Shown: positions 14,400 to 36,583 of the stretch, one piece after another | How the letters are laid out: every line of letters begins with the position of its first letter | How positions within the stretch are numbered: the first letter of the stretch is position 1 | Virus record (IMG/VR): IMGVR_UViG_3300042455_001086 | Coordinates: 1-64,000 of that record | Length of the DNA: 64,000 nt | From: a virus | Strand: one strand, 5' to 3' | The notes under the pieces: model-generated | Database searches by the model: none | Seen by the model: only the letters and a program-made list of their open reading frames with translations | Told to the model about the DNA's origin: nothing | Program-made: the position numbers and the translations under genes

Positions 14400-17300
14400 T
14401 TACCCATTTAGTAATTTGTCCAATTCTTTTTCAATATCACCCAATGAATTACGACCTTTTGATAGATCAATATATTCATCTTCGACCAAATCATTACTCT
14501 CAAGTAAGATGTTAAAGTTTCTTTTTTCTACACTATCCATCATTGGTTCTCCTCCTCCTGGTGGTGGGGGTGGTGCTCCTTCTCCTCCTGGTGGTGGGGG
14601 TGGTGCTCCTCCTGCTGTTACAGTTTCACCCGATACTGTTTTATATAATTTATCAATATTATCAAACATACCAGTTTTAGTAATTACGGTTGCGGTATTT
14701 GCTAGCTCAGCGGCAACAGCTCTTTCTAATCTTATTTGTTGTATTTCAAGTTTAATTTCTTCGTCGGAGAACCCAAATATGTGTTTTTTAGCCCAAGTTG
14801 CAGAAGTTGGTTGTAATGTGTTTGCAATTTCTGTAACCATATCTTTATACAATAAAACTTTTTCTTTCCAAACTGAAACCATAAGTAAATCAGCTTGTTT
14901 TGAGGGATTAGTAAGTCCTAGAGTAAAGTTGTGTAGTTCGTCTTCAAAACCTAATAAAAATAAATGAATGATTGCAATTTTATTCAGTTCGGCAATCATA
15001 CTTTTTTGTATTTTATTTATGGTTCTAGCAAAACGAATATCAAGTAATGATAGATTATCACCATTTCCAACCGGTTCTTCAAAACCTAAAAATGCTTTTG
15101 GTATTCTTAACGCTGTTACAAGTTTCTTTTGGATATATTCAATATCGGCAATCTCCGATAAGTTTTGAGCACCAGGTAATGTTTCAATTGGCATAGTTGC
15201 CGCTGGATCTCTAACAGGAATAAAATAATCTTGATCTACGGCCATTTGATTAAATCTTAAATCAACATTACCAGTTTTAGAATCAACAACCTGATCCCTT
15301 TTAAATTTGTTTGCAACTCTTTGTACATAAGCCTCAACATCCTTATCATCCATATTTCCAACAAACACTTTAAACACCCTTCTTTCTGGTGCTCTTGATG
15401 TTCTATATATTAACATCGCATCTTCAGCCAAAACAAGTTGTTTCCAAATTCTACGAGCTTTTTCAAGCATTGATGTTCCGTATGGAAGTTTTCTATCATC
15501 ACCTAATAATCTGAAATGAGCCATTTCCCAAGTGTTAAACTCCATGTCTTTGTTTTTCCAAACAAACTTTAAATTTTTATTTTTGAATTGAACTTCAGGA
15601 CCCAAAACCGAATTCATAGTTCTGGCTTCCATTCCTCTTTCTAGTCTTTCAATTTCTATGTTTGGTAGTTGAAGACAGCCGACAACACCTTTTTCTGGGT
15701 CTAATTTTAAATAAACGAAATTATCGCCATATTTACAGTTGGACAAAAACACACCGGTTTCTCTTGAATGATTACCATTTACATCAAAACCACAGACTGG
15801 GAAATTATGTCTATCATGTTCTCCGTTCGGACCAACAGCTTCTAAACAATAAACATCAGATGTTTCATCTAACTTAATTACTGAAACAACTTTATGGTTA
15901 ATAACTTTTACTTTAGTTTTTCCTTCAAAAATTGACTTAGCTTTAATATATTTTTCATCTAAAATAATTTCTGGTTTAATATCAGATATAAAATCAAAAT
16001 AATTTTTATTTGTTTTTCTTAAAATAACTTTTTTTAATGTTGTTGGATTAATTGATTTTGTGATATTTTTATTTAATTTATAATTTTCTTTGAATAGTTT
16101 GATAAACTCATTATCTGATTTGAGAATTTTTGACAACTCATTTACTCCCACATATGTCTCACAATTTTTAATTAAATTAGAAATATACGATAAACAAGTA
16201 TCATTAATTTCAATTGTCATCCCCTTTTTTGTTTTTTCTATAAAATTATTATCTCTCCAATGATTTAACATTTTATTTGAACGAATTATATTGTGTTTGA
16301 CATGTAATTCACTATTATTATAATTTTCAAAATATCTATTATAGACACCAGTCATTTCTTTGGATAGTCTTTGTCTTCGTTTTTCTGAACGCAAATACCT
16401 ATCAATTCCATCCATTCTTTTTTTAACAACTTCTGGCGAACCTAATATTTTATTAAAATGTTCCACATGTAATTTAAAATGATCCGAATGTCTCATTCTA
16501 CTCAAATTTTTTGGGTGATTATTTAGTTTGTTAAAATCAATGTGATGTGTGTCAAATTGCTCACCAATTATTTTTTCATTTTCCAAATCTCTAACACATT
16601 CATGTGAAACCATTGTGTGGGTAAATTTATATTTTCCTGTACTTGGGTTAAATACCTTTTCATAACCGACAATTCGGTCTTTTTTCTTTTCACTTTTTTT
16701 AGTGTAAAACGGCATTAATGATTCACCTTTAGTTAATTTATCAGCTCGTTTAAATGACCCATCCCTAAGCATATATTCGTGATCTGGTGTCGTGTCAATA
16801 TATGTACCATCATCTAGTGTGACCCTATACAACTCACTATTTTTTCTAGTTAGGTCACACCATATAATTTTACTAGGAACAATTGCTTTAGTTCCATCTT
16901 GTATTGAGTAAGACCAAATCTCCTCACCATTCTTAATCCTATCACTCAATTCTTTTATTGATACTTCTGTACCATCTAATAATGGTATCATAGTATTCTC
17001 TCTAATTGGAGTGTTTCTTACCCACATTGGTAAATTGATTGATATGTCCAAAACATTATTAAACAAATCAGTTAAAATTGATTTGATTCTCTTTGATTCT
17101 GAATATATCTGTAGAACATAACCATCTTGATTTGGTGTTGTAGATTCCTCAGAATAAATGTCTAAAGCCGTTGATATTTCAGGAGTATTATGTGAAAATA
17201 TAGTATCAGTTGCAAAGTTTTTATATCCTGGAACTGTTAAATCATAAACAGGTATGACACCATTTTCTTCTATTGATACTATTTTATGATTAAATACTAA

Positions 17301-18422
17301 TGTGTTTCCCTTACTTTTTACTGTTGCGTATATTGATTTTTTAATCCCGTATGCTTCTAAAAATGTGGACCAATCTTTATACCCACTATTTACGATTTCT
17401 CTTTGTATTTTTCTATATGATACATTTAATTTTTTTGCAGTACCCTTTAATGTTTTTATTTCTCTGGCGGTTTCTATGATACTATCAAAAGGTATTTTAA
17501 AGTAAGCTGGGTTATTAATACCACTTCTCTTACCATCCCAACTATGTTCACCTGTTCTTTTTGCAACTTCAGACATTTTTTGTCTATACTCTGGGTTTGT
17601 CCACAATTTTTCGTTGTTTAATCTTGCGTGATAAGCTCTATGTTCGGAAATATTCATTATTTGTAAATTTTCCGGTTTGTTATTTTTACCGTTAAAATCT
17701 ATATGATGAACTTCTTCATCTTTGTTAATTTTTTTACCATAAAACCATTCTGCAATTAAATTATGTTCCGAAACCCATCCATTATGACCTTCTTCTGAAT
17801 TACAAGTATATACCCAATTATATTTTTCATTATTGTAAAATGATTTTCTATAAAAAGGCATCATTGAGTCCCCTTCTTTTAAGTTCATTACACGTTCAAA
17901 TGAACCATCTCTTTTCATTAGTTGATGTTCCCATGTTGTTACAATATATGAACCGTCGTCAAATGTAATTTTATATGTCATTTCATCTCTCGTATAATGA
18001 GCATTTCTAGCTAAAGCCGGAACAACTTTTTTTAAATTGTGGTCATATGCGTACGTAATAAATTCATAATCTCTACCTTTTTCGGCTAATTCTTTAATTG
18101 TTATAAAACCATCTGTGGTTGCGATTTTAGTATCTCCCGCAATACAATATTCCATTGATTCATAATCATAAAAAGCCGCAATTCTATTAGGTTCATAATA
18201 CACCGCTTGAGCATATAAATTATTCTCAATTTTTTGCCATTGATTACTTAAAAATAAACTTTGTTGGTATTCTAATTTTTCTTTTTCGTATTCTTGTTTA
18301 TCTGTTGTTTTTAATAAAACCGTTTTATCCAATTTAACTGTTGGTTGGTCTAGATTCAAAAGTGAGTTGGGGCCAAATGTTTTGGATAATTTCTGCCATA
18401 TTGTCAAGTTATTTTTTTCCAT
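14400..18422 (-). CDS. Portal protein (gp20-like) containing two inteins
   Basis: 1340 residues as encoded and about 596 after removal of two inteins (residues 93-412 and 472-895), close to T4 gp20 size. Extein signatures: NRIAAFYDYESMEY | TPEISTALDIYSEES, LPMWVRNT | CKYGDNFVYLKLDP, then ARRIWKQLVLAEDAMLIYR and APERRVFKVFVGNM, all typical of T4-like portals. The C-terminus has two Gly/Pro-rich repeats from a 30-bp duplication. The portal forms the dodecameric DNA channel at the head vertex. It follows the terminase and the 316-residue gene. Confidence 0.92.
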   Translation of the reverse strand: MEKNNLTIWQKLSKTFGPNSLLNLDQPTVKLDKTVLLKTTDKQEYEKEKLEYQQSLFLSNQWQKIENNLYAQAVYYEPNRIAAFYDYESMEYCIAGDTKIATTDGFITIKELAEKGRDYEFITYAYDHNLKKVVPALARNAHYTRDEMTYKITFDDGSYIVTTWEHQLMKRDGSFERVMNLKEGDSMMPFYRKSFYNNEKYNWVYTCNSEEGHNGWVSEHNLIAEWFYGKKINKDEEVHHIDFNGKNNKPENLQIMNISEHRAYHARLNNEKLWTNPEYRQKMSEVAKRTGEHSWDGKRSGINNPAYFKIPFDSIIETAREIKTLKGTAKKLNVSYRKIQREIVNSGYKDWSTFLEAYGIKKSIYATVKSKGNTLVFNHKIVSIEENGVIPVYDLTVPGYKNFATDTIFSHNTPEISTALDIYSEESTTPNQDGYVLQIYSESKRIKSILTDLFNNVLDISINLPMWVRNTPIRENTMIPLLDGTEVSIKELSDRIKNGEEIWSYSIQDGTKAIVPSKIIWCDLTRKNSELYRVTLDDGTYIDTTPDHEYMLRDGSFKRADKLTKGESLMPFYTKKSEKKKDRIVGYEKVFNPSTGKYKFTHTMVSHECVRDLENEKIIGEQFDTHHIDFNKLNNHPKNLSRMRHSDHFKLHVEHFNKILGSPEVVKKRMDGIDRYLRSEKRRQRLSKEMTGVYNRYFENYNNSELHVKHNIIRSNKMLNHWRDNNFIEKTKKGMTIEINDTCLSYISNLIKNCETYVGVNELSKILKSDNEFIKLFKENYKLNKNITKSINPTTLKKVILRKTNKNYFDFISDIKPEIILDEKYIKAKSIFEGKTKVKVINHKVVSVIKLDETSDVYCLEAVGPNGEHDRHNFPVCGFDVNGNHSRETGVFLSNCKYGDNFVYLKLDPEKGVVGCLQLPNIEIERLERGMEARTMNSVLGPEVQFKNKNLKFVWKNKDMEFNTWEMAHFRLLGDDRKLPYGTSMLEKARRIWKQLVLAEDAMLIYRTSRAPERRVFKVFVGNMDDKDVEAYVQRVANKFKRDQVVDSKTGNVDLRFNQMAVDQDYFIPVRDPAATMPIETLPGAQNLSEIADIEYIQKKLVTALRIPKAFLGFEEPVGNGDNLSLLDIRFARTINKIQKSMIAELNKIAIIHLFLLGFEDELHNFTLGLTNPSKQADLLMVSVWKEKVLLYKDMVTEIANTLQPTSATWAKKHIFGFSDEEIKLEIQQIRLERAVAAELANTATVITKTGMFDNIDKLYKTVSGETVTAGGAPPPPPGGEGAPPPPPGGGEPMMDSVEKRNFNILLESNDLVEDEYIDLSKGRNSLGDIEKELDKLLNG
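14551..14610 (-). repeat. 30-bp tandem duplication (Gly/Pro repeat) in portal C-terminus
   Basis: Two adjacent 30-bp copies (14551-14580 and 14581-14610) that differ at one base encode an Ala-Pro5-Gly2-type repeat. Confidence 0.85.
15738..17009 (-). other. Intein 2 in portal, HNH type, apparently starting with Pro
   Basis: Residues 472-895. The block A spacing (P-I-R-E-N-T-M-I) places Pro at position 1 where Cys or Ser is normal. Block B is TTPDHEYML and the HNH motif is HHIDFNKLNNHPKNL. The C-terminus is FLSN with +1 Cys, so the penultimate residue is Ser, not His. Splicing gives RNT|CKYGDNF, a natural portal sequence, which supports the junction assignment. Confidence 0.8.
17187..18146 (-). 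other. Intein 1 in portal, with HNH endonuclease
   Basis: Residues 93-412. Block A: C-I-A-G-D-T-K-I. Block B: VTTWEHQL. The endonuclease motif HHIDFNGKNNKPENLQIM is HNH type. Blocks F/G: VYDLTVPGYKNF...FSHN, then +1 Thr. Class 1 layout with Cys1 and terminal His-Asn. The extein junction EY|TPEIS restores a normal portal sequence. Confidence 0.9.
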
Positions 18423-19486: not shown

Positions 19487-22400
19487 CTATCTTTTACCAA
19501 ATAACCAACCATATTCCATATAATCTCTTCTTGACGGTCCGGAATTATTTCTATTAAATCTATCGTTATTAACTCCCATATTTGGTATTACAGGATCAAA
19601 ATGAATTTGTTTTCCAATATTATCATTATTTGCAACAGTCCAAGATTCAATCATTATTTTTGTTTTTTCTGTAACTTTTTCAAGTTTTGAGAATGATGAC
19701 TCACCAACATATATTGCCATTGATATACCCATTATAAGATCATCGTGTTGTCCTTTTTGGTGATCTGGCCTTCCGTTTATATAGACAAACGTATTCATCT
19801 CATTATACAAACGAACACTTCTGATTTTAAATTTATGTCTTACATATTCCTCAAATGCCGCAATAATTTGAACTCTTTTGTTATTAAAATTTATTCCTGG
19901 TATTTTATCTGCCGATGTTTTATTAACAGCCCAAATATTCATAGAATCAACACCATCAATATAAAGGTTTTTATATCCAAGTTCTTGCATTTTTCTTACA
20001 GTTGTGATTCCCATACCACCGGTGATATCCACAACACAAAATGCGTTATACATTATCCCCCATTTATACGCAATTTCAGCTAAAGCATCAGGAGGGATCT
20101 TTCCAACATATTCTAATACTTGTTCTCTTTCATCAAAATCAATAATCTGGAGTGAGGAAAAGTCCTCACTATCACCACGAGAAACATCACAGTTGTGTGT
20201 GGTAATGTGGTGACACATAAAAGTATGTGTTTCACACTCAAAGTTATACACATTTCCAGTAAATTGATTCTTATCAATATCTTTAATCCTAAAGTAAATA
20301 TATTTATTATCCTTACTAAAATGACACCCACTTATAATCCTTTTATTATTAATACTAAAATCACTTAACTCAAATCTATTTAATTTGGGGTCAAGTTTAT
20401 CATTATTCAAAATTTTAATTAAATCCAAACTATCTTGATTTGATAATGATAAACTGTATGTTTCTTTATGTTTTATAGTTTTACCCTTTATTTGTGATTG
20501 TTTTTCATTTCGTAACTTACTTAACGATGAAACAACACCAAATGAAAACAATATGTCTTGGATTGACTCCAATAGTTCCAAATTTATACTAACAAATGTT
20601 ATTTTAGAATTTACTTTACCTTTTTTTTTGGTTTTCAACCAACAACCGTCACTAGCTAAATAACCTTTTATCAATTCAATTTTATATTCTTTAGGTATAA
20701 ATTTAACCCATTCTGATATTTTTTTACCATATGAATATTTACCAAAATTTTCTAATATAAAATGATATAGAAATTTTGAATTAAACACTAATTCATAACT
20801 ATTCTGATCTTTATCAAAAAATGACGGACTTCTGTCAAATAATCTTTTTATTATATTTTTTGTTTTATCCAAATAATACAAATCTTTAGAATCAAAACAG
20901 ATATTTATTGTAAAACTATGACCAACATCATACATACAACCATCACCTAACCACATACCTATAAACCACCAAAAATCTTTATCCTTTAATGGTGATTTAA
21001 TATTAAAATCGGTTCTAATATTTTCAGAAATAACCCATTTATCCTCTAATATATTTTCAATTTCTTTATTATAAATATTCGGAGTTTTAACCCAATCACC
21101 AACCTCAACTTCCTCAACCCTTGTGTATTTAAAATTAAAATCCCAATATCTTTCATTAAAATCTAATGAATTATGTTTTTTACTATAATTACGTTTTAAA
21201 ACTGGATTACTTATTAACAACGGATGTTCTTTTGTGAATGTCGTTTTTCTAAAAGTGTTGTCGACCTTAATTGTAAAAATATCCTCATCAACGACTGGGT
21301 ATATTTGTTTATTATAAATCTTAACATATTCACCATTTTCACTAACTAACTTATCATCTAATGTAACATCTTCAATATTTTTTAACCCACAATCAGTTAA
21401 TACTTTTTCACTAGGTGGCAAACAACCTAAAATGTATTTATGTCCCGGTACTGGTTCTTTCCAAATCCAAAGAGCATTACCCATCATTTTTGTTGGAGCT
21501 TCTTGTATTGTGTTTTGTTTTATGTAATCAAGTTGTTTTCCGTCAAATACATTATCTCCAGACCCTAAAAATTCACAATTTAACTCTTGGTTAATTTTTC
21601 TTTTATCGTATTTTAATTTTTTAACCATCTTCTCATACCAAGTAGAACATGGTTTATATCCTTGTGAAAAATATTCTCTTATTTTCTCATAATCCCTATT
21701 ATATGGATCCGAGTCCTCAAATGATATATTCCCAGAATGATCTCTTTCATCTTTATTAAGTAGATAATCAACCATATCATCAGTTGGAACTAAATATAAA
21801 TCTTTTGAATATCTTGGGTCTTTCCACCAAAACATTTCAGAAATTTTAAAATTGTTAATTCCTTTATTTGCCTGATTATATATTTCATAATAAATTGGAT
21901 CATAACCGTTTGGTGTTGAAACAACAATAACTTTACCACCGGTAGATAGGGACGCCATACAAGCTGCCCAGAAATCACCATCAGCTTCGATAAACGCCGC
22001 CTCATCAAATACAAGTATTGTTGGTGTATAACCCCTCAACGCATCTCGTGATGTTGCAACAGCTTTAACTTCACAACCATTTGTTAGTTTATAGTGTCTT
22101 TGTGAGTTTTTATCAGCTGAAAATCCGGTTCCAACCCAAGAAGGCCATTGTTCTACAAAGGCTCTAATTTTATTTGCCATCTCCATTGATGTATCAAGTT
22201 TGTTGGCAATAATCAATATTTTTTCTGGTCGTTCTTTTTTTGCAAAAACCAGTCTTTTTGATATCCAAGCAGCGGTTACTGTTGATACACCAGCCTGACG
22301 ATATTTTAAAGCTATATTTTCTTCAAAATCTTCATAATCTTTAAGTAGTGATATTTGATCTGGAAATAACTCTAATGGTACATATTTGGAAACGGTATTA

Positions 22401-22492
22401 TCATATGTTTGTAAATATGTTCTTAAAGCATATGGAGTGTCTTTCATACATCTCACATACTCCAACATCACCTGTTCTTTTGTTAAACCCAT
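19487..22492 (-). CDS. Large terminase subunit (gp17-like) with one intein
   Basis: 1001 residues, about 590 after splicing. ATPase domain: a deviant Walker A ALKYRQAGVSTVTAAW (Lys placed before RQ, as in some terminases), Walker B ILVFDEAAF, and motif III VVSTPNG. The nuclease domain begins HKYILG | CDVSRGDSEDFS, with the first catalytic Asp right after the intein, and continues VVDITGGMG and DHQKGQHDDLIMGISMA. It packages DNA through the portal. It lies upstream of the portal with one gene between. Confidence 0.92.
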   Translation of the reverse strand: MGLTKEQVMLEYVRCMKDTPYALRTYLQTYDNTVSKYVPLELFPDQISLLKDYEDFEENIALKYRQAGVSTVTAAWISKRLVFAKKERPEKILIIANKLDTSMEMANKIRAFVEQWPSWVGTGFSADKNSQRHYKLTNGCEVKAVATSRDALRGYTPTILVFDEAAFIEADGDFWAACMASLSTGGKVIVVSTPNGYDPIYYEIYNQANKGINNFKISEMFWWKDPRYSKDLYLVPTDDMVDYLLNKDERDHSGNISFEDSDPYNRDYEKIREYFSQGYKPCSTWYEKMVKKLKYDKRKINQELNCEFLGSGDNVFDGKQLDYIKQNTIQEAPTKMMGNALWIWKEPVPGHKYILGCLPPSEKVLTDCGLKNIEDVTLDDKLVSENGEYVKIYNKQIYPVVDEDIFTIKVDNTFRKTTFTKEHPLLISNPVLKRNYSKKHNSLDFNERYWDFNFKYTRVEEVEVGDWVKTPNIYNKEIENILEDKWVISENIRTDFNIKSPLKDKDFWWFIGMWLGDGCMYDVGHSFTINICFDSKDLYYLDKTKNIIKRLFDRSPSFFDKDQNSYELVFNSKFLYHFILENFGKYSYGKKISEWVKFIPKEYKIELIKGYLASDGCWLKTKKKGKVNSKITFVSINLELLESIQDILFSFGVVSSLSKLRNEKQSQIKGKTIKHKETYSLSLSNQDSLDLIKILNNDKLDPKLNRFELSDFSINNKRIISGCHFSKDNKYIYFRIKDIDKNQFTGNVYNFECETHTFMCHHITTHNCDVSRGDSEDFSSLQIIDFDEREQVLEYVGKIPPDALAEIAYKWGIMYNAFCVVDITGGMGITTVRKMQELGYKNLYIDGVDSMNIWAVNKTSADKIPGINFNNKRVQIIAAFEEYVRHKFKIRSVRLYNEMNTFVYINGRPDHQKGQHDDLIMGISMAIYVGESSFSKLEKVTEKTKIMIESWTVANNDNIGKQIHFDPVIPNMGVNNDRFNRNNSGPSRRDYMEYGWLFGKR
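20192..21424 (-). other. LAGLIDADG intein in terminase nuclease domain
   Basis: Residues 357-767 (411 aa), Cys1. Block B: TFTKEHPLL. Two dodecapeptides: FIGMWLGDGC and LIKGYLASDGC. C-terminal block: VYNFECETHTFMCHHITTHN, with +1 Cys. It is inserted one residue before the catalytic Asp of the DVSRGD motif, so unspliced protein cannot be an active packaging nuclease. Confidence 0.9.
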
Positions 22493-31266: not shown

Positions 31267-31300
31267 AAGACCCCCAAAAAATGGGGGTTTTTTTATTTTA
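31267..31300. terminator. Bidirectional terminator
   Basis: Stem ACCCCCA/TGGGGGT with T runs on both strands between the convergent CAP gene and UVR gene. Confidence 0.8.
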
Positions 31301-31661
31301 GGGAGTTAATTTTATCTCTCACTTCTATAGCCCTCTCAAAGTTTTGTGTTTTAATACAATCTTCAAGTTCTTTATTGAGCTCACTTATTTTTTCTTTGTT
31401 TTCTTCTAGATTTTTTATTCTATCTCTTAACTCCACAGCTTCCTCAAAATTTTGTTCCTCAACCGCCATATCCAATTTTTGTTTTAATAGTGTTATTTCA
31501 TCGGATTTGGTTAAATTACCTCTTTTATTTGTAATGTAGGTAAATGAAATTGACCCATCTGGTGAATGATAAGTTTTTTTATCCCAATCATTAGTATTCC
31601 CAAATAATGGATCCGAATTAAAAAATTCATTAAATAATCTTTCTAAATTTCTGTTAAACAT
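31293..31661 (-). CDS. McsA-like protein with two UVR motifs
   Basis: 122 residues. Two tandem UVR motifs: LKQKLDMAVEEQNFEEAVEL and LNKELEDCIKTQNFERAIEV, each followed by RDxI. UVR motifs occur in UvrB, UvrC, ClpC and the ClpC adaptor McsA. The N-terminal 55 residues lack the zinc cysteines of bacterial McsA. It is divergent from the ClpC-like gene, which itself carries a UVR motif, so a partnership is likely (inference). Confidence 0.7.
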   Translation of the reverse strand: MFNRNLERLFNEFFNSDPLFGNTNDWDKKTYHSPDGSISFTYITNKRGNLTKSDEITLLKQKLDMAVEEQNFEEAVELRDRIKNLEENKEKISELNKELEDCIKTQNFERAIEVRDKINSLK

Positions 31662-31822
31662 TTTTTTATATTTTAAAGGTTTATTTTGTAATTTTTTTTA
31701 ACCAATTTTGTTCCAAACAAAAAAGTATGACAAAATGTCAGTATAAAATTTTAGTATATGACAAAAAGACAAATATTGACAACAAATCTATTTATATCTA
31801 AAATTAGATAAAACTTTTAGAT

Positions 31823-32110
31823 ATGGCAATAGAATTTGTAGATGATGGAGACAAAAACAAAAGAAAAGGTGATGGTAGCACACCTATTTTAGACAATTTC
31901 AGCAAAGATTTAATTAAAGCTGCTGAACAAGGAAAATTGGATCCTGTTATTGGGAGGCAAAAAGAAGTGTTAAGAATTGCACAGATATTATCAAGGAGAA
32001 AAAAAAATAATCCAATTATAATTGGTGAACCCGGATGTGTATTAGGAGACACTTGGATTGAGGTTGAGAAAGTATCTAATGTTGATACTCACAATTTTAA
32101 AAAGTTGTGA
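31823..32110 (+). CDS. ClpC-like ATPase, N-terminal part fused to a 24-residue N-intein
   Basis: 95 residues. Residues 1-71 are the start of a Clp D1 AAA module ([27 protein letters not shown]), ending inside Walker A. Residues 72-95 begin [12 protein letters not shown] and end with a stop: a typical intein block A (C-x-x-G-D-T) but only 24 residues long, as in atypically split inteins such as AceL-TerL (25 residues, known family). There is no Clp N-domain. The rest of the ATPase is encoded 1.2 kb downstream. Trans-splicing is required for an active enzyme. Confidence 0.88.
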
Positions 32111-32153
32111 TATTTATTATTAGGTATTGGTATATCCCAACACCTGGATTATT

Positions 32154-33335
32154 ATGTTTATCAAGAAAAACGGTAAGAATTTAATTGAAATTAATACAGT
32201 CATTGAGTTTCAAAATTTTATATTAGATAAAAAATTTTATAAATATTTTATAAAATTTAGGGATTCAGACATCCAAAAAGTTAATGACTTAATTAATCAG
32301 ACTGAGTTTTTAAATTATAAAAAAATAAAACCAGTGTTAAGGTCGGTATTAAACTATCCTGAAAGTATCTATAATAAAGATTTTTTATTAAGTATGGGTT
32401 GGGAATTGGATATGATTGATATTTTTATATCCGAAAAACAAAGTAAAAATTCTAATATTTTAAAACAAAAGAAACAATCAAACCCAGAAAAATATAAAAG
32501 TAGTGAAACTACAAATATTGAATATTGGTTAAATAAGGGATATAACCTAAATGATGCTAAAATTAAATTGAGTGAGCGTCAATCAACTTTTAGTTTAAAA
32601 AAATGTATAGATAAATATGGTGAAGTTGTTGGGACTGAAAAATTCTTAAATAGACAAAAAAAATGGATAAACACATTAAAAAATAAAGAAAATTTTCAAG
32701 AAGTGCAGTTGAAAAAAAATGTATTTAAATATGATGTGAAAGAAACAAAATTGTTATTACAACACGCAAACTATAAAGAAAAAACAAAAGGAATTATTAT
32801 GGGTTGTTCTACCTATAATACAATTAATGAATTTATTGATTGTATCATTAAAAATGATGACATAAAAAAATATTCGGATTTGACACAGTATGTTAATAGT
32901 AAAGTCATTTGTAATATATTTAAAACAACACCAACAATCATAAAAAATTTATTTTATGAGAAAATAAATCTAAATCAAAATAGACAATATTATGGTATAT
33001 CTGTATATCATAATGGTATTAGATATAAAAGTGTTGGTGAATATAGAGTTGCGTTATTTTTGGAAGAAAATAAAATTAATTTCGACTACGAAAAAAATTA
33101 TCCAAACTCAAATTTAAAGTGTGATTTTTATCTAAAAGAGAAAGATACATACATTGAATTATATGGACTATTAAATAAGAAAAATTTAAACAAATTAGAT
33201 GATAATCAACAGATATATAAACAAAAAGTTGATTTTAAAAATCAATTTTGTATAGACAATAATATAAAATTGATTTATGATTTTGACTATAACTTATTAA
33301 TTAATAAAATACAAAATTATTATTATGAAAATTAA
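32154..33335 (+). CDS. Free-standing homing endonuclease between the halves of the split ClpC gene
   Basis: 393 residues from ATG 32154 (402 from 32127). The C-terminal nuclease core KSVGEYRVALFLEENKINFD...LKCDFYLKEKDTYIEL is Vsr/PD-(D/E)XK-like, the EDxHD group reported with fractured genes. The N-terminal part is helical with repeats typical of DNA-binding regions of phage endonucleases. Its last 11 bp overlap the start of the C-terminal ClpC gene. It likely cuts an intact clpC gene and spreads the split-intein cassette. Confidence 0.8.
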   Translation: MFIKKNGKNLIEINTVIEFQNFILDKKFYKYFIKFRDSDIQKVNDLINQTEFLNYKKIKPVLRSVLNYPESIYNKDFLLSMGWELDMIDIFISEKQSKNSNILKQKKQSNPEKYKSSETTNIEYWLNKGYNLNDAKIKLSERQSTFSLKKCIDKYGEVVGTEKFLNRQKKWINTLKNKENFQEVQLKKNVFKYDVKETKLLLQHANYKEKTKGIIMGCSTYNTINEFIDCIIKNDDIKKYSDLTQYVNSKVICNIFKTTPTIIKNLFYEKINLNQNRQYYGISVYHNGIRYKSVGEYRVALFLEENKINFDYEKNYPNSNLKCDFYLKEKDTYIELYGLLNKKNLNKLDDNQQIYKQKVDFKNQFCIDNNIKLIYDFDYNLLINKIQNYYYEN

Positions 33336-33723
33336 AATTAAAGATTTTTTCGAGTTAATTGAAAAAGAAGGGGGGACATATAAAATTAAAACTCCATCAG
33401 GATATAAATTAATTGGTAATTTATATGAAAAACAAAATAAACTTTGTTATGAAATAAAATTATCTAACGGTAATACTTTATCGGGTTCTGAAGATCATTT
33501 AGTTGAGGTTGATTCAACAACAACTAATGAAAATTCAGAATTGATAAATGAATCATTTTGGGTTAAATTAAAAAATATCAATTTGGGCGACTTTATTTTT
33601 TGTGAAGATAATAATTTATACGATGTTATTGAAAAAAATGAAATTGGTATTCATAATACATATGATCTTGAAGTTCTTGATAATGAGCGTAAATATATTT
33701 CAAACGGTATTGTGTCACACAAT
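33325..33723 (+). other. C-intein (133 aa) of split ClpC intein
   Basis: Covers blocks B, F and G. The last codon AAT (Asn) is at 33721-33723 and +1 TGT (Cys) follows. The partner N-intein is 32036-32107. Confidence 0.88.
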
Positions 33724-35574
33724 TGTGGTAAAACGGCCATTGTTGAAGGGTTAGCAATGATGATACATTCTGGTGAATGCCCAAAAAATTTAGCTGATAA
33801 AAGAATTGTATCATTAGATATTAACTCACTTGTTGCTGGAACAAAATATAGAGGACAATTTGAAGAAAGAATGAAGGTTATAATTGAAGAATTACAATCA
33901 AACCCAAATATTATAATCTTTATTGATGAAATTCATACAATGGTTGGTGCTGGTAATAGTTCTGGATCATTAGACGCTTCAAATATTCTTAAACCTTCAC
34001 TATCAAGGGGTGAAATTCAATGTATTGGTGCTACAACACTTGACGAATACAGAAAACATTTTGAAAAGGATGGTGCGTTAGAAAGAAGATTCCAAAAGAT
34101 AATTGTTGACCCTTCATCAAAAGAAGAGACATTTCAAATTTTAAAACAGAGTAAGGAAAAATATGAGGAACACCACAAAGTAAATTACACAGATGAATCA
34201 CTTTGGTTATGTGTTGAGTTAGCGGATAGATATATTACGGATCGTGAATTTCCAGATAAGGCTTTTGATATTTTAGATGAGATTGGTTCTCGTATGCAAA
34301 TTGATATTAAACTTCCGGAACATATAGAAAAATTAAAACAAGAAGCCGCAGATATTAAACTAGAAAAAGTTGATGTTATTAAAAAACAAAAATATGAATT
34401 AGCTGCCGAACTTCGTGATAGAGAAAAAAATATTTTATCTAAACTTGAGGAAGAAAAGAAAAAATTTGAGGACGAACTCAAAAATAGTAAAAGAGGTATT
34501 CCGGAGGACTTAATTTACGAAGTCGTTTCAAATATGACAAAAATTCCAGTTAGTAAGATTAATATAGACGAAAAAAATTCACTTGTTAATTTGGAAGACT
34601 CACTTAATGGTTCTGTTATTGGTCAAGAAGAAGCGGTTAAAAAGATTTCAAAAGCAATTAGACGAAATAGAGTAGGTATTAAGGATCCAAATAGACCAAT
34701 TGGTTCATTTATCTTCCTAGGATCTACTGGTGTGGGAAAAACATTTTTGGCGAAAAAGTTGGCAAAAGAAATTTTTGGGAGTAAAGATAGTTTAATTAGA
34801 GTAGATATGTCTGAATATCAAGAAAAACACACAATTTCACGACTAATCGGCTCACCTCCTGGTTATGTTAATTCAGACGAAGGTGGTCAATTAACAGAGC
34901 AAGTTAAAAATAAACCATATTCCGTGATATTATTTGATGAAATAGAAAAAGCACACAAAGACATTTTTTCAACACTTTTGCAAGTATTAGATGACGGACA
35001 TATTACTGATAGTCTTGGTAGAAAAATTAATTTTAAAAATTGTTTAATTATAATGACATCAAATATTGGTGTTAAAAAATTGCAAGATTTTGGTAGTGGT
35101 GTTGGTTTTAAAACATCAAATAATAGTGAAGCTGTTCAAGAAGAATATAAACGAGATGTTCTAAAGAAAGAACTAAGTAAGTTTTTTGCACCAGAATTTT
35201 TAAATAGAATTGATGATGTTGTTGTCTTTAATTCATTAAAAAAAGAACAAATCAATAAAATTGTTAAACTTGAAATTGATAAACTAATAAAACGGTTAGA
35301 TTCAATGAAGTATAAAATTTCGTATGAAAATTCAGTAATTGATTTAATTGCCAAAGTTGGGTTTGATGAACAATATGGTGCAAGACCAATAAAGAGAGCA
35401 ATCCAGGATAAAATTGAAGATTTAATTTCAGAAAAAATATTATTGAATGAAGTTATTGAAGAAAAGGAATATGTGTTATTTGTCAAAGGAGAAGGTGATG
35501 GCCAGACAATAGAAATTGAAGATAGATCAAAACCAGAACCGAAAAAAAGAGGTAGAAAGAAAAAGGAGGATTAA
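33325..35574 (+). CDS. C-intein fused to the remainder of the ClpC-like ATPase
   Basis: 749 residues. Residues 1-133 are the C-intein: block B SGSEDHLVEV, block F NTYDLEVLDNERKYI, ending SNGIVSHN, then +1 Cys. Residue 134 on (CGKTAIVEGLA) completes Walker A of D1. D1 Walker B IIFIDEIHTM; UVR motif KKQKYELAAELRDREKNIL; D2 Walker A GSTGVGKTFLAKKL, Walker B VILFDEIEKA, arginine-containing C-domain YGARPIKRAI. The spliced product is ~687 residues, like ClpC without its N-domain. The tail is basic (KKRGRKKKED). It unfolds proteins, probably with host ClpP or as a disaggregase (inference). Confidence 0.9.
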   Translation: MKIKIKDFFELIEKEGGTYKIKTPSGYKLIGNLYEKQNKLCYEIKLSNGNTLSGSEDHLVEVDSTTTNENSELINESFWVKLKNINLGDFIFCEDNNLYDVIEKNEIGIHNTYDLEVLDNERKYISNGIVSHNCGKTAIVEGLAMMIHSGECPKNLADKRIVSLDINSLVAGTKYRGQFEERMKVIIEELQSNPNIIIFIDEIHTMVGAGNSSGSLDASNILKPSLSRGEIQCIGATTLDEYRKHFEKDGALERRFQKIIVDPSSKEETFQILKQSKEKYEEHHKVNYTDESLWLCVELADRYITDREFPDKAFDILDEIGSRMQIDIKLPEHIEKLKQEAADIKLEKVDVIKKQKYELAAELRDREKNILSKLEEEKKKFEDELKNSKRGIPEDLIYEVVSNMTKIPVSKINIDEKNSLVNLEDSLNGSVIGQEEAVKKISKAIRRNRVGIKDPNRPIGSFIFLGSTGVGKTFLAKKLAKEIFGSKDSLIRVDMSEYQEKHTISRLIGSPPGYVNSDEGGQLTEQVKNKPYSVILFDEIEKAHKDIFSTLLQVLDDGHITDSLGRKINFKNCLIIMTSNIGVKKLQDFGSGVGFKTSNNSEAVQEEYKRDVLKKELSKFFAPEFLNRIDDVVVFNSLKKEQINKIVKLEIDKLIKRLDSMKYKISYENSVIDLIAKVGFDEQYGARPIKRAIQDKIEDLISEKILLNEVIEEKEYVLFVKGEGDGQTIEIEDRSKPEPKKRGRKKKED

Positions 35575-35653: not shown

Positions 35654-36583
35654 ATGTTGGTTAATAAAGAACAATATTATAGTTATACTGAATTAAAAGA
35701 TTTAATTAAAAATCAAAACATAACAACAAAAGAATCATATATTTCTAATTATAAAAATCTTAAGATTTATGGTAAAAAGGCACCAATAAATCCAATAACA
35801 TTTTACGGTAAAAATATTTGTAAAAATTGGTCTGAATTTTTAGGAAAACCAATATATAAAAAAAATAAATATGGTGTGTACTACACATACGAAAAATGTA
35901 AAAAACAAATTAGACTTCTAAATATTAAAAGTAAAAATGATTATTATAATCAAATAAATAAAATTATGTCTGAAGAAACTGGGATACCATATAATCCGGT
36001 CTCAATATATAAATCAGAATGGGAAGGTTGGGGTATTTTTTTAGGAACTAACCGAATACAAGATAATCTTAAAAAATACAAACCATTTGATGAGGCTCGT
36101 GATTGGGCTCGTAGTTTAAATCTAAAAATGGGTAAAGAATGGACAAAATTAGAACTAACAAAATTACCAACCAACATACCAAAAAAACCAGAAAAAACAT
36201 ATAAAGATAAAGGATGGATTGATTATTACGATTGGCTGGGGATTGACAAAAGAACTAAAATTAGTTATGGTGAAAAGGTAATTTTTGATTTTCTAACTAA
36301 AAACAAAATAAAATTCCAGTACGACAAGTCTCTTTTAAATTGTAGAGATAAAAATAAACTTCGTTTTGATTTCTATCTCCCAGAAAAAAATATATGTATT
36401 GAATTTGATGGGATACAACATTTTAAACCTATTTCAATATTTGGTGGTGAAAGTGAGTTTGAAAAAGTTAAAATAAGAGATAGAATAAAAAATGATTTTT
36501 GTGAATTAAACAGTATAAAATTAATTAGAGTTAATTATTCACAATCAAATGACGAAATAATTAAAATATTGGGCTGTTTATAA
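35654..36583 (+). CDS. Free-standing homing endonuclease (Vsr-like)
   Basis: 309 residues. The N-terminal two thirds has repeated W.(E/G)..LG units (NWSEFLGKP, GWGIFLGTN, YYDWLGID), common in large-phage endonucleases. The nuclease core SYGEKVIFDFLTKNKIKF, then LRFDFYLPEKNICIEFDGIQH fits the EDxHD/Vsr type. It is flanked by two identical 29-bp terminator copies, marking it as a recent insertion. Confidence 0.8.
   Translation: MLVNKEQYYSYTELKDLIKNQNITTKESYISNYKNLKIYGKKAPINPITFYGKNICKNWSEFLGKPIYKKNKYGVYYTYEKCKKQIRLLNIKSKNDYYNQINKIMSEETGIPYNPVSIYKSEWEGWGIFLGTNRIQDNLKKYKPFDEARDWARSLNLKMGKEWTKLELTKLPTNIPKKPEKTYKDKGWIDYYDWLGIDKRTKISYGEKVIFDFLTKNKIKFQYDKSLLNCRDKNKLRFDFYLPEKNICIEFDGIQHFKPISIFGGESEFEKVKIRDRIKNDFCELNSIKLIRVNYSQSNDEIIKILGCL

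What the first reader, a model, noticed from the sequence alone, without database searches (positions are those of the whole stretch)
31823..35574. Fractured ClpC gene joined by an atypically split intein with a free-standing endonuclease gene inside
The ClpC-like ATPase is cut inside its D1 Walker A motif (GEPG | CGKT). The first gene ends with a 24-residue N-intein (C-V-L-G-D-T...), a separate Vsr-like endonuclease gene follows, and the second gene starts with a 133-residue C-intein ending SHN plus +1 Cys. Split inteins with free-standing EDxHD endonucleases are known from metagenomes, and 25-residue N-inteins are known from phage terminases. I know of no report with a Clp unfoldase. Assembly of the ATPase would depend on trans-splicing at its own nucleotide-binding loop, so activity is off until both halves meet.
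Basis: partly seen in the sequence, partly recalled or inferred. Interest (0 to 1): 0.95.

Follow-up and report, generated by a model that had tools for sequence, protein, structure and literature searches.

The report
Phage ClpC gene broken by split intein
In a large T4-like phage, the gene for a protein-unfolding machine (ClpC) is cut in two at its ATP-binding loop by a mobile element whose two ends stay on the two protein halves and should splice them together, and in some relatives the same protein is cut into three pieces at both of its ATP-binding loops.

Summary
A 71-residue N-extein with a 24-residue N-intein (31823-32110), a free-standing nuclease gene (32154-33335) and a 133-residue C-intein with a 616-residue C-extein (33325-35574) share one strand. 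The joined exteins give a gap-free 687-residue ClpC, about 90% identical to uninterrupted phage relatives. The stop codon is not an error: identical DNA occurs in three further contigs, and 17 more sequence variants carry the same split at the same codon. Seven have lost the nuclease and are still split. The C-intein is predicted to fold like VidaL, an atypically split intein. Patchy distribution, and inteins far more alike than their exteins, show transfer between clpC genes. Best reading: a mobile fractured-gene element (split intein plus homing nuclease) parked in a P-loop. Trans-splicing and homing are inferred, not shown; I found no sign that splicing regulates ClpC. Beyond the first report: a second family of split inteins interrupts the D2 Walker A, and two contigs encode ClpC as three proteins. 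Related split inteins sit in Walker A of SbcC/gp46-like and PhoH-like ATPases. The kind is known; Clp unfoldases as hosts appear unreported in the papers I could search.

The parts
31789..31795 (+). TATTTAT box upstream of clpC gene A (likely phage promoter)
   Evidence: Related box ATATTTAT lies in sense within 80 nt upstream of 24 of 58 genes (1.6 expected; reverse complement 1 of 58); position
31823..32035 (+). N-extein: ClpC D1 up to GEPG of Walker A (71 aa, no Clp_N domain)
   Evidence: 62-87% identical to the same part of relatives; no Clp_N anywhere in the record
32036..32107 (+). N-intein, 24 aa ([24 protein letters not shown]), block A
   Evidence: conserved in 18 variants, pN/pS 0.30
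32108..32110 (+). Conserved stop codon of gene A
   Evidence: 24 codons after GEPG in 16 of 18 variants, 26 in L097, 18 in L127; identical DNA in three other contigs
32110..32117 (+). ATATTTAT promoter-like box of the nuclease gene, overlapping the stop
   Evidence: Invariant in the 9 nuclease-bearing copies aligned, absent from the 7 copies without nuclease; directional enrichment in the window
32122..32145 (+). Hairpin upstream of the nuclease start (stem 9, loop TATATC)
   Evidence: 84% of cells paired vs 71% shuffled (0/500 as high), 4 pairs with changes on both sides
32154..33335 (+). Free-standing putative homing endonuclease, 393 aa; EDxHD/Vsr-like domain about residues 285-383
   Evidence: Foldseek to I-Bth0305I (3r3p) prob 0.95, 1vsr 0.60; C-terminal 82 aa 39% identical to ORF 35654-36583, which matches a phrog homing endonuclease
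33325..33723 (+). C-intein, 133 aa, start codon overlapping the nuclease stop, ends SHN
   Evidence: TIGR01443 above cut-off; profile hit VidaL E 1.1e-10; model pLDDT 94.9, VidaL TM 0.83
33724..35571 (+). C-extein: rest of D1 from +1 Cys (CGKT), middle segment, D2 and tail, 616 aa
   Evidence: Best PDB relatives are ClpC chains (6em8, E 5e-195); 91% identical to intact L002/L003

Best explanation
This is a mobile element of the fractured-gene type: an atypically split intein with a free-standing homing nuclease, inserted between GEPG and the next residue of the D1 Walker A of a phage ClpC. The two clpC pieces are translated separately. The 24-residue N-intein and 133-residue C-intein associate, fold as one HINT domain and trans-splice (Cys1; His58 and His132-Asn133 of the C-intein; +1 Cys), leaving a 687-residue ClpC with an intact GEPGCGKT loop. 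The nuclease gene has its own promoter-like box and hairpin, and its product should cut intein-free clpC alleles so that repair copies the element in. Shown here: anatomy, conservation, selection on both halves, predicted fold, patchy distribution and transfer between clpC genes, nuclease decay and loss. Inferred: trans-splicing, DNA cutting and homing. The element then follows the usual cycle of homing parasites (invade, lose the nuclease, persist), except that the gene usually stays broken.
For: Splicing residues are present and invariant: Cys1 in all N-inteins, His58, His132, Asn133 and +1 Cys in the D1 C-inteins (+1 Thr in L127). HINT fold: VidaL, itself an atypically split intein, is the best match by profile (E 1.1e-10) and by structure (TM 0.83, rmsd 1.7). 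Joined exteins match intact ClpC without gaps. Purifying selection on every piece. Mobility: on a tree of 91 D1 exteins the intein needs 10 changes, at least 6 forced by well-supported branches; C-inteins of L098/L099 have dS 0.04 against 0.78 for their exteins; L126 and L091 inteins are 99-100% identical with flanks at 87-92%, and L126 has the nuclease that L091 lacks. Nearest intein-free relatives of the window have Ala at +1, intein-bearing ones Cys, as expected if flanks are co-converted. Nuclease decay: intact in 8 variants, frameshifted in L085, remnants in L095 and L127, gone in 7. A D2 copy, L142, has N- and C-parts fused in one 173-residue intein: the halves are parts of one domain.
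Against: No splicing, cutting or homing has been measured. The nuclease domain matches known homing nucleases only weakly and its active site is not canonical EDxHD. The tree is of quick type with some long branches, and the intein-free relatives were picked by similarity to the window, so the count of gains is rough.
Confidence: 0.9

Rival explanations
1. The split is kept because trans-splicing controls ClpC: the unfoldase is off until both halves accumulate, and the nuclease gene's own promoter sets the timing or ratio.
For: Seven variants lost the nuclease but stayed split, two of them (L091, L118) with stop and ATG in frame and close together. A promoter-like box inside the locus could give different levels of the two pieces.
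Against: 77 relatives in the tree do without any intein at this site, so the control is dispensable. Nuclease-less copies also lose the internal box. Walker A is a usual niche of this element: relatives sit in ClpC D2, SbcC/gp46 and PhoH. At D2 one copy is fused (L142). Staying split is also expected if re-fusion is simply rare.
Confidence: 0.08
2. The halves do not splice; they associate non-covalently into a working ClpC, or the gene is dying.
For: A reductase gene split in two by a homing nuclease gene, working as two peptides, is mentioned in PMC10448857.
Against: The break lies inside the P-loop. Splicing residues are invariant and all pieces are under purifying selection. +1 is Cys (Thr in L127) in intein-bearing copies although Ala is tolerated in intein-free ones.
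Confidence: 0.04
3. Sequencing or assembly error hides a contiguous intein.
Against: Three further contigs with the same DNA, 17 other variants with the same split, and a 393-residue ORF under constraint between the halves.
Confidence: 0.01

Closest known systems
Fractured genes: split inteins with free-standing nuclease genes (Dassa et al. 2009, cited in PMC6892783 and PMC10448857; not readable here)
   Same: Gene cut at a conserved motif, two genes each carrying an intein half, nuclease ORF between them (details of the 2009 paper from memory)
   Different: Host gene is a Clp unfoldase; the N-intein is 24 aa rather than about 100; some relatives have two such breaks in one protein
Atypically split inteins: VidaL (PDB 6vgv), PolB16 OarG with 15-aa N-intein (PMC10189870), AceL-TerL (from memory)
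   Same: Very short N-intein, long C-intein; VidaL is the closest solved structure
   Different: 22% identity to VidaL in the structural alignment; other host proteins
Split PolB intein with HNH nuclease of jumbo phage MIJ3 (PMC6892783)
   Same: Jumbo phage gene in two pieces with a nuclease ORF between
   Different: DNA polymerase host, HNH nuclease, block A to N4 all on the N-part
ClpP inteins of green-algal chloroplasts (PMC5784728)
   Same: Intein in the Clp system
   Different: In the peptidase ClpP, not the ATPase
EDxHD homing endonuclease I-Bth0305I and Vsr
   Same: Likely fold of the nuclease domain
   Different: No significant sequence match; no conserved histidine after E335

Membership tests
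Intein (HINT splicing domain) | Block A with Cys1 and block B histidine | tested here: met
   CVLGDT in gene A; H58 invariant in 12 aligned D1 C-inteins
Intein (HINT splicing domain) | Block F/G with His-Asn and +1 Cys/Ser/Thr | tested here: met
   YDLEVLDNERKYISNGIVSHN|C; TIGR01443 20.5 bits over cut-off 15.6
Intein (HINT splicing domain) | HINT fold | tested here: met
   pLDDT 94.9, top PDB matches are inteins
Intein (HINT splicing domain) | Splicing activity | not testable with these tools
   Needs expression
Atypically split intein | N-intein far shorter than about 100 aa, separate start and stop codons | tested here: met
   24 aa in 16 of 18 variants (18 in L127, 26 in L097); stop and ATG out of frame in 13 of 18
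Fractured gene | Nuclease ORF between the two gene halves | tested here: met
   Window and 7 other variants intact, others decayed or lost
EDxHD homing endonuclease | Vsr-like nuclease fold | tested here: inconclusive
   3r3p prob 0.95 but E 0.16; 1vsr prob 0.60; whole-model pTM 0.34, nuclease domain itself well predicted
EDxHD homing endonuclease | Catalytic E, D, H, D residues | tested here: inconclusive
   E296, D324, E335 invariant in 8 sequences, no conserved His after E335; the exact motif positions could not be read from the primary paper
EDxHD homing endonuclease | Cuts the intein-free site | not testable with these tools
   Needs enzyme assay
ClpC | Two AAA+ modules closest to ClpC | tested here: met
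   ClpC chains are the best PDB relatives; weak UVR match in the middle (14.9 bits, below cut-off)
ClpC | ClpP-docking loop (VGF) | tested here: met
   GSGVGFKTS in D2; role inferred from known ClpC
ClpC | N-terminal Clp_N domain | tested here: not met
   Absent from gene A and from the record; present in relatives L127 and L142. So: a ClpC-type ATPase without the N domain

The most novel reading that the evidence does not exclude
Clp unfoldases of large phages are a hot spot for ultrashort-N split inteins at both Walker A motifs. In two contigs (L125/L134 and L099/L133) one ClpC must be built from three polypeptides by two different, mutually orthogonal trans-splicing reactions, the middle piece carrying a C-intein at one end and an N-intein at the other: a naturally three-part, doubly trans-spliced protein.
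Probability: 0.75. Interest if true: 0.75.

Novelty: new member of a known kind. Interest (0 to 1): 0.62.

Why it matters
It adds an AAA+ protein unfoldase to the hosts of split inteins and gives a series (empty site, split with nuclease, decayed nuclease, split without nuclease, one fused copy) in which the life cycle of split inteins can be read. The three-piece ClpC offers a natural pair of split inteins that must already work side by side in one protein, which protein engineers otherwise build by hand. N-inteins of 18-26 residues are short enough for chemical synthesis.

Tried and rejected
Assembly error or hidden contiguous intein: rejected. Readthrough or frameshift joining the halves: rejected by out-of-frame stop-to-ATG distances in 13 of 18 variants. 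Bacterial carriers: one scan of genome contigs gave only a short chance match in L132. Rfam: nothing credible for the hairpin. Pfam, NCBIfam: no family for the nuclease. PDB sequence search with the nuclease profile: nothing useful. Named phages: no ClpC with this intein; best-named hits are TerL inteins at 26-31%. Dassa et al. 2009 is not held. Papers combining split intein with ClpC, ClpA, ClpB or huge phage: none relevant, with the limit that only open-licence papers were searched.

Full report
WHAT IS THERE. The window is the start of a 257-kb virus record with T4-like capsid, portal and terminase genes; its capsid is nearest to uncultured huge phages and to Flavobacterium phages. At 31823-35574, on the + strand, three ORFs follow each other. 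Gene A ends ...[10 protein letters not shown], then [24 protein letters not shown] and a stop. The nuclease ORF runs 32154-33335. Gene C starts at 33325, overlapping the nuclease stop, with 133 residues ending SHN and then CGKTAIVEG.... Leaving out the intein halves gives 687 residues that align without a gap to uninterrupted phage ClpC (613-619 of 687 identical to L002/L003). The closest solved proteins of the C-extein are ClpC chains. There is no Clp_N domain and no ClpP gene in the record, though the record may be incomplete.

IT IS NOT AN ERROR. Three other contigs, named after different IMG datasets, hold the same 11-12 kb at 99.96-100% identity. Searches of viral contigs with the C-extein, the C-intein and the nuclease gave mostly uninterrupted ClpC genes and 17 further distinct sequence variants of the split intein at the same codon. 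The N-intein is 24 residues in all but L097 (26) and L127 (18). In 13 of 18 variants the stop and the ATG of gene C are out of frame.

THE INTEIN. Cys1, the block B histidine and His-Asn are invariant, and +1 is Cys (Thr in L127). A profile of 16 C-inteins finds VidaL first (E 1.1e-10). The model of the C-intein (pLDDT 94.9) matches VidaL with TM 0.83 and rmsd 1.7. VidaL is an atypically split intein (from memory), and N-inteins down to 15 residues are known (PMC10189870). Both halves and both exteins evolve under similar purifying selection.

THE NUCLEASE. The 393-residue protein is 44-61% identical among copies, with looser constraint than the intein (pN/pS 0.39-0.64). Its C-terminal domain resembles I-Bth0305I and Vsr in fold, at low significance. 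It keeps E296, D324 and E335 but has no conserved histidine after E335, so I call it EDxHD/Vsr-like, not a proven member. Directly before it lies ATATTTAT, a box found in sense within 80 nt upstream of 24 of 58 genes in the window (1.6 expected), then a hairpin with four pairs that change on both sides. Box and hairpin are seen in all nine nuclease-bearing copies aligned; the seven copies without nuclease lack the box. The nuclease gene thus seems to be expressed as a unit of its own (inference).

LIFE CYCLE. Of 18 variants, 8 have an intact nuclease ORF, L085 is frameshifted, L095 and L127 keep remnants, and 7 have none. L098 keeps a scar that still reads like the end of the nuclease (NKIHLIYDVNLNKLIEKIKL, from the DNA; compare NKINLIYDVNLDKLIEKIKL of L062). 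All 18 are still split. L126 (with nuclease) and L091 (without) have N- and C-inteins 100% and 99% identical, with flanking extein at 87-92%. C-inteins of L098 and L099 have dS 0.04, their exteins 0.78. On a tree of 91 exteins the intein needs 10 changes, at least 6 forced by well-supported branches. This is transfer between clpC genes, as homing predicts. The window's closest intein-free relatives have Ala at the +1 codon, while 47 other matches read GEPGCGKT without intein, so the spliced loop is a normal ClpC loop.

MORE THAN ONE SITE. In L099 and L125 the D2 Walker A is also broken: GVGK|C...-stop, a nuclease ORF, then ...SHN|T. A search with this second C-intein gave 24 loci, nearly all at the same D2 codon of ClpC; L142 has a contiguous 173-residue version in a 1019-residue ORF, and L153/L154 carry this family at the equivalent codon of D1 (GVGK|T). 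The two families are related (hhalign probability 98) but far apart. L125/L134 thus encodes ClpC by five ORFs in a row: 97-aa N-piece, nuclease, 503-aa middle piece with C-intein at one end and N-intein at the other, second nuclease, 417-aa C-piece. In L099 the first nuclease is gone, leaving four ORFs. Related split inteins with free nucleases interrupt the Walker A of an SbcC/gp46-like protein (L131) and of a PhoH-like ATPase in the 462-kb phage LR756500.1 (L248; PhoH by my reading of the sequence). The common target is the P-loop.

HOW IT PROBABLY WORKS. See Best explanation. Splicing and homing are inferred from anatomy and evolution. The idea that splicing is a switch for ClpC is possible but unsupported: most relatives do without it, and the same elements sit in other P-loops.

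WHAT IS NEW. Fractured genes and atypically split inteins are known kinds. I found no report of either in a Clp ATPase in the open-licence library; inteins in ClpP are known (PMC5784728). Two breaks in one protein, with two intein families, also looks new, but the limits of the library mean this is not proof of absence.

Noticed in passing
window, both strands; e.g. 32110-32117: ATATTTAT lies within 80 nt upstream, in sense, of 24 of 58 genes (1.6 expected; the reverse complement once): a likely phage promoter box, unlike the T4 late TATAAATA read in the same sense.
   Followed up: partly
window 32122-32145: Hairpin with compensatory changes before the nuclease start in nine relatives; no credible Rfam match. 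Could control nuclease translation or stabilise its mRNA.
   Followed up: partly
window 14400-18422 (-): T4-like portal protein (gp20) ORF of 1340 aa with Intein_splicing matches in two stretches and an HNH domain: intein or inteins in a portal protein.
   Followed up: no
window 19487-22492 (-): Large terminase with a LAGLIDADG domain, so probably a further intein-bearing gene in the window; another intein match at record position 205797-206819.
   Followed up: no
window 31293-31661 (-): Small protein with two UVR motifs, McsA-like, divergent from clpC: possible ClpC adaptor.
   Followed up: no
window 35654-36583 (+): Second free-standing homing-nuclease gene directly after clpC, sharing the nuclease domain with the intein's nuclease (39% over 82 aa), with an AT-rich inverted repeat before its start.
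   Followed up: partly
L153 5001-5354, L154 5001-5360: D2-type intein family sitting at the equivalent codon of D1 (GVGK|T): a jump between the two Walker A motifs.
   Followed up: partly
L131 3327-7220; L248 587-3849: Same kind of split intein and nuclease in Walker A of SbcC/gp46-like and PhoH-like ATPases.
   Followed up: partly
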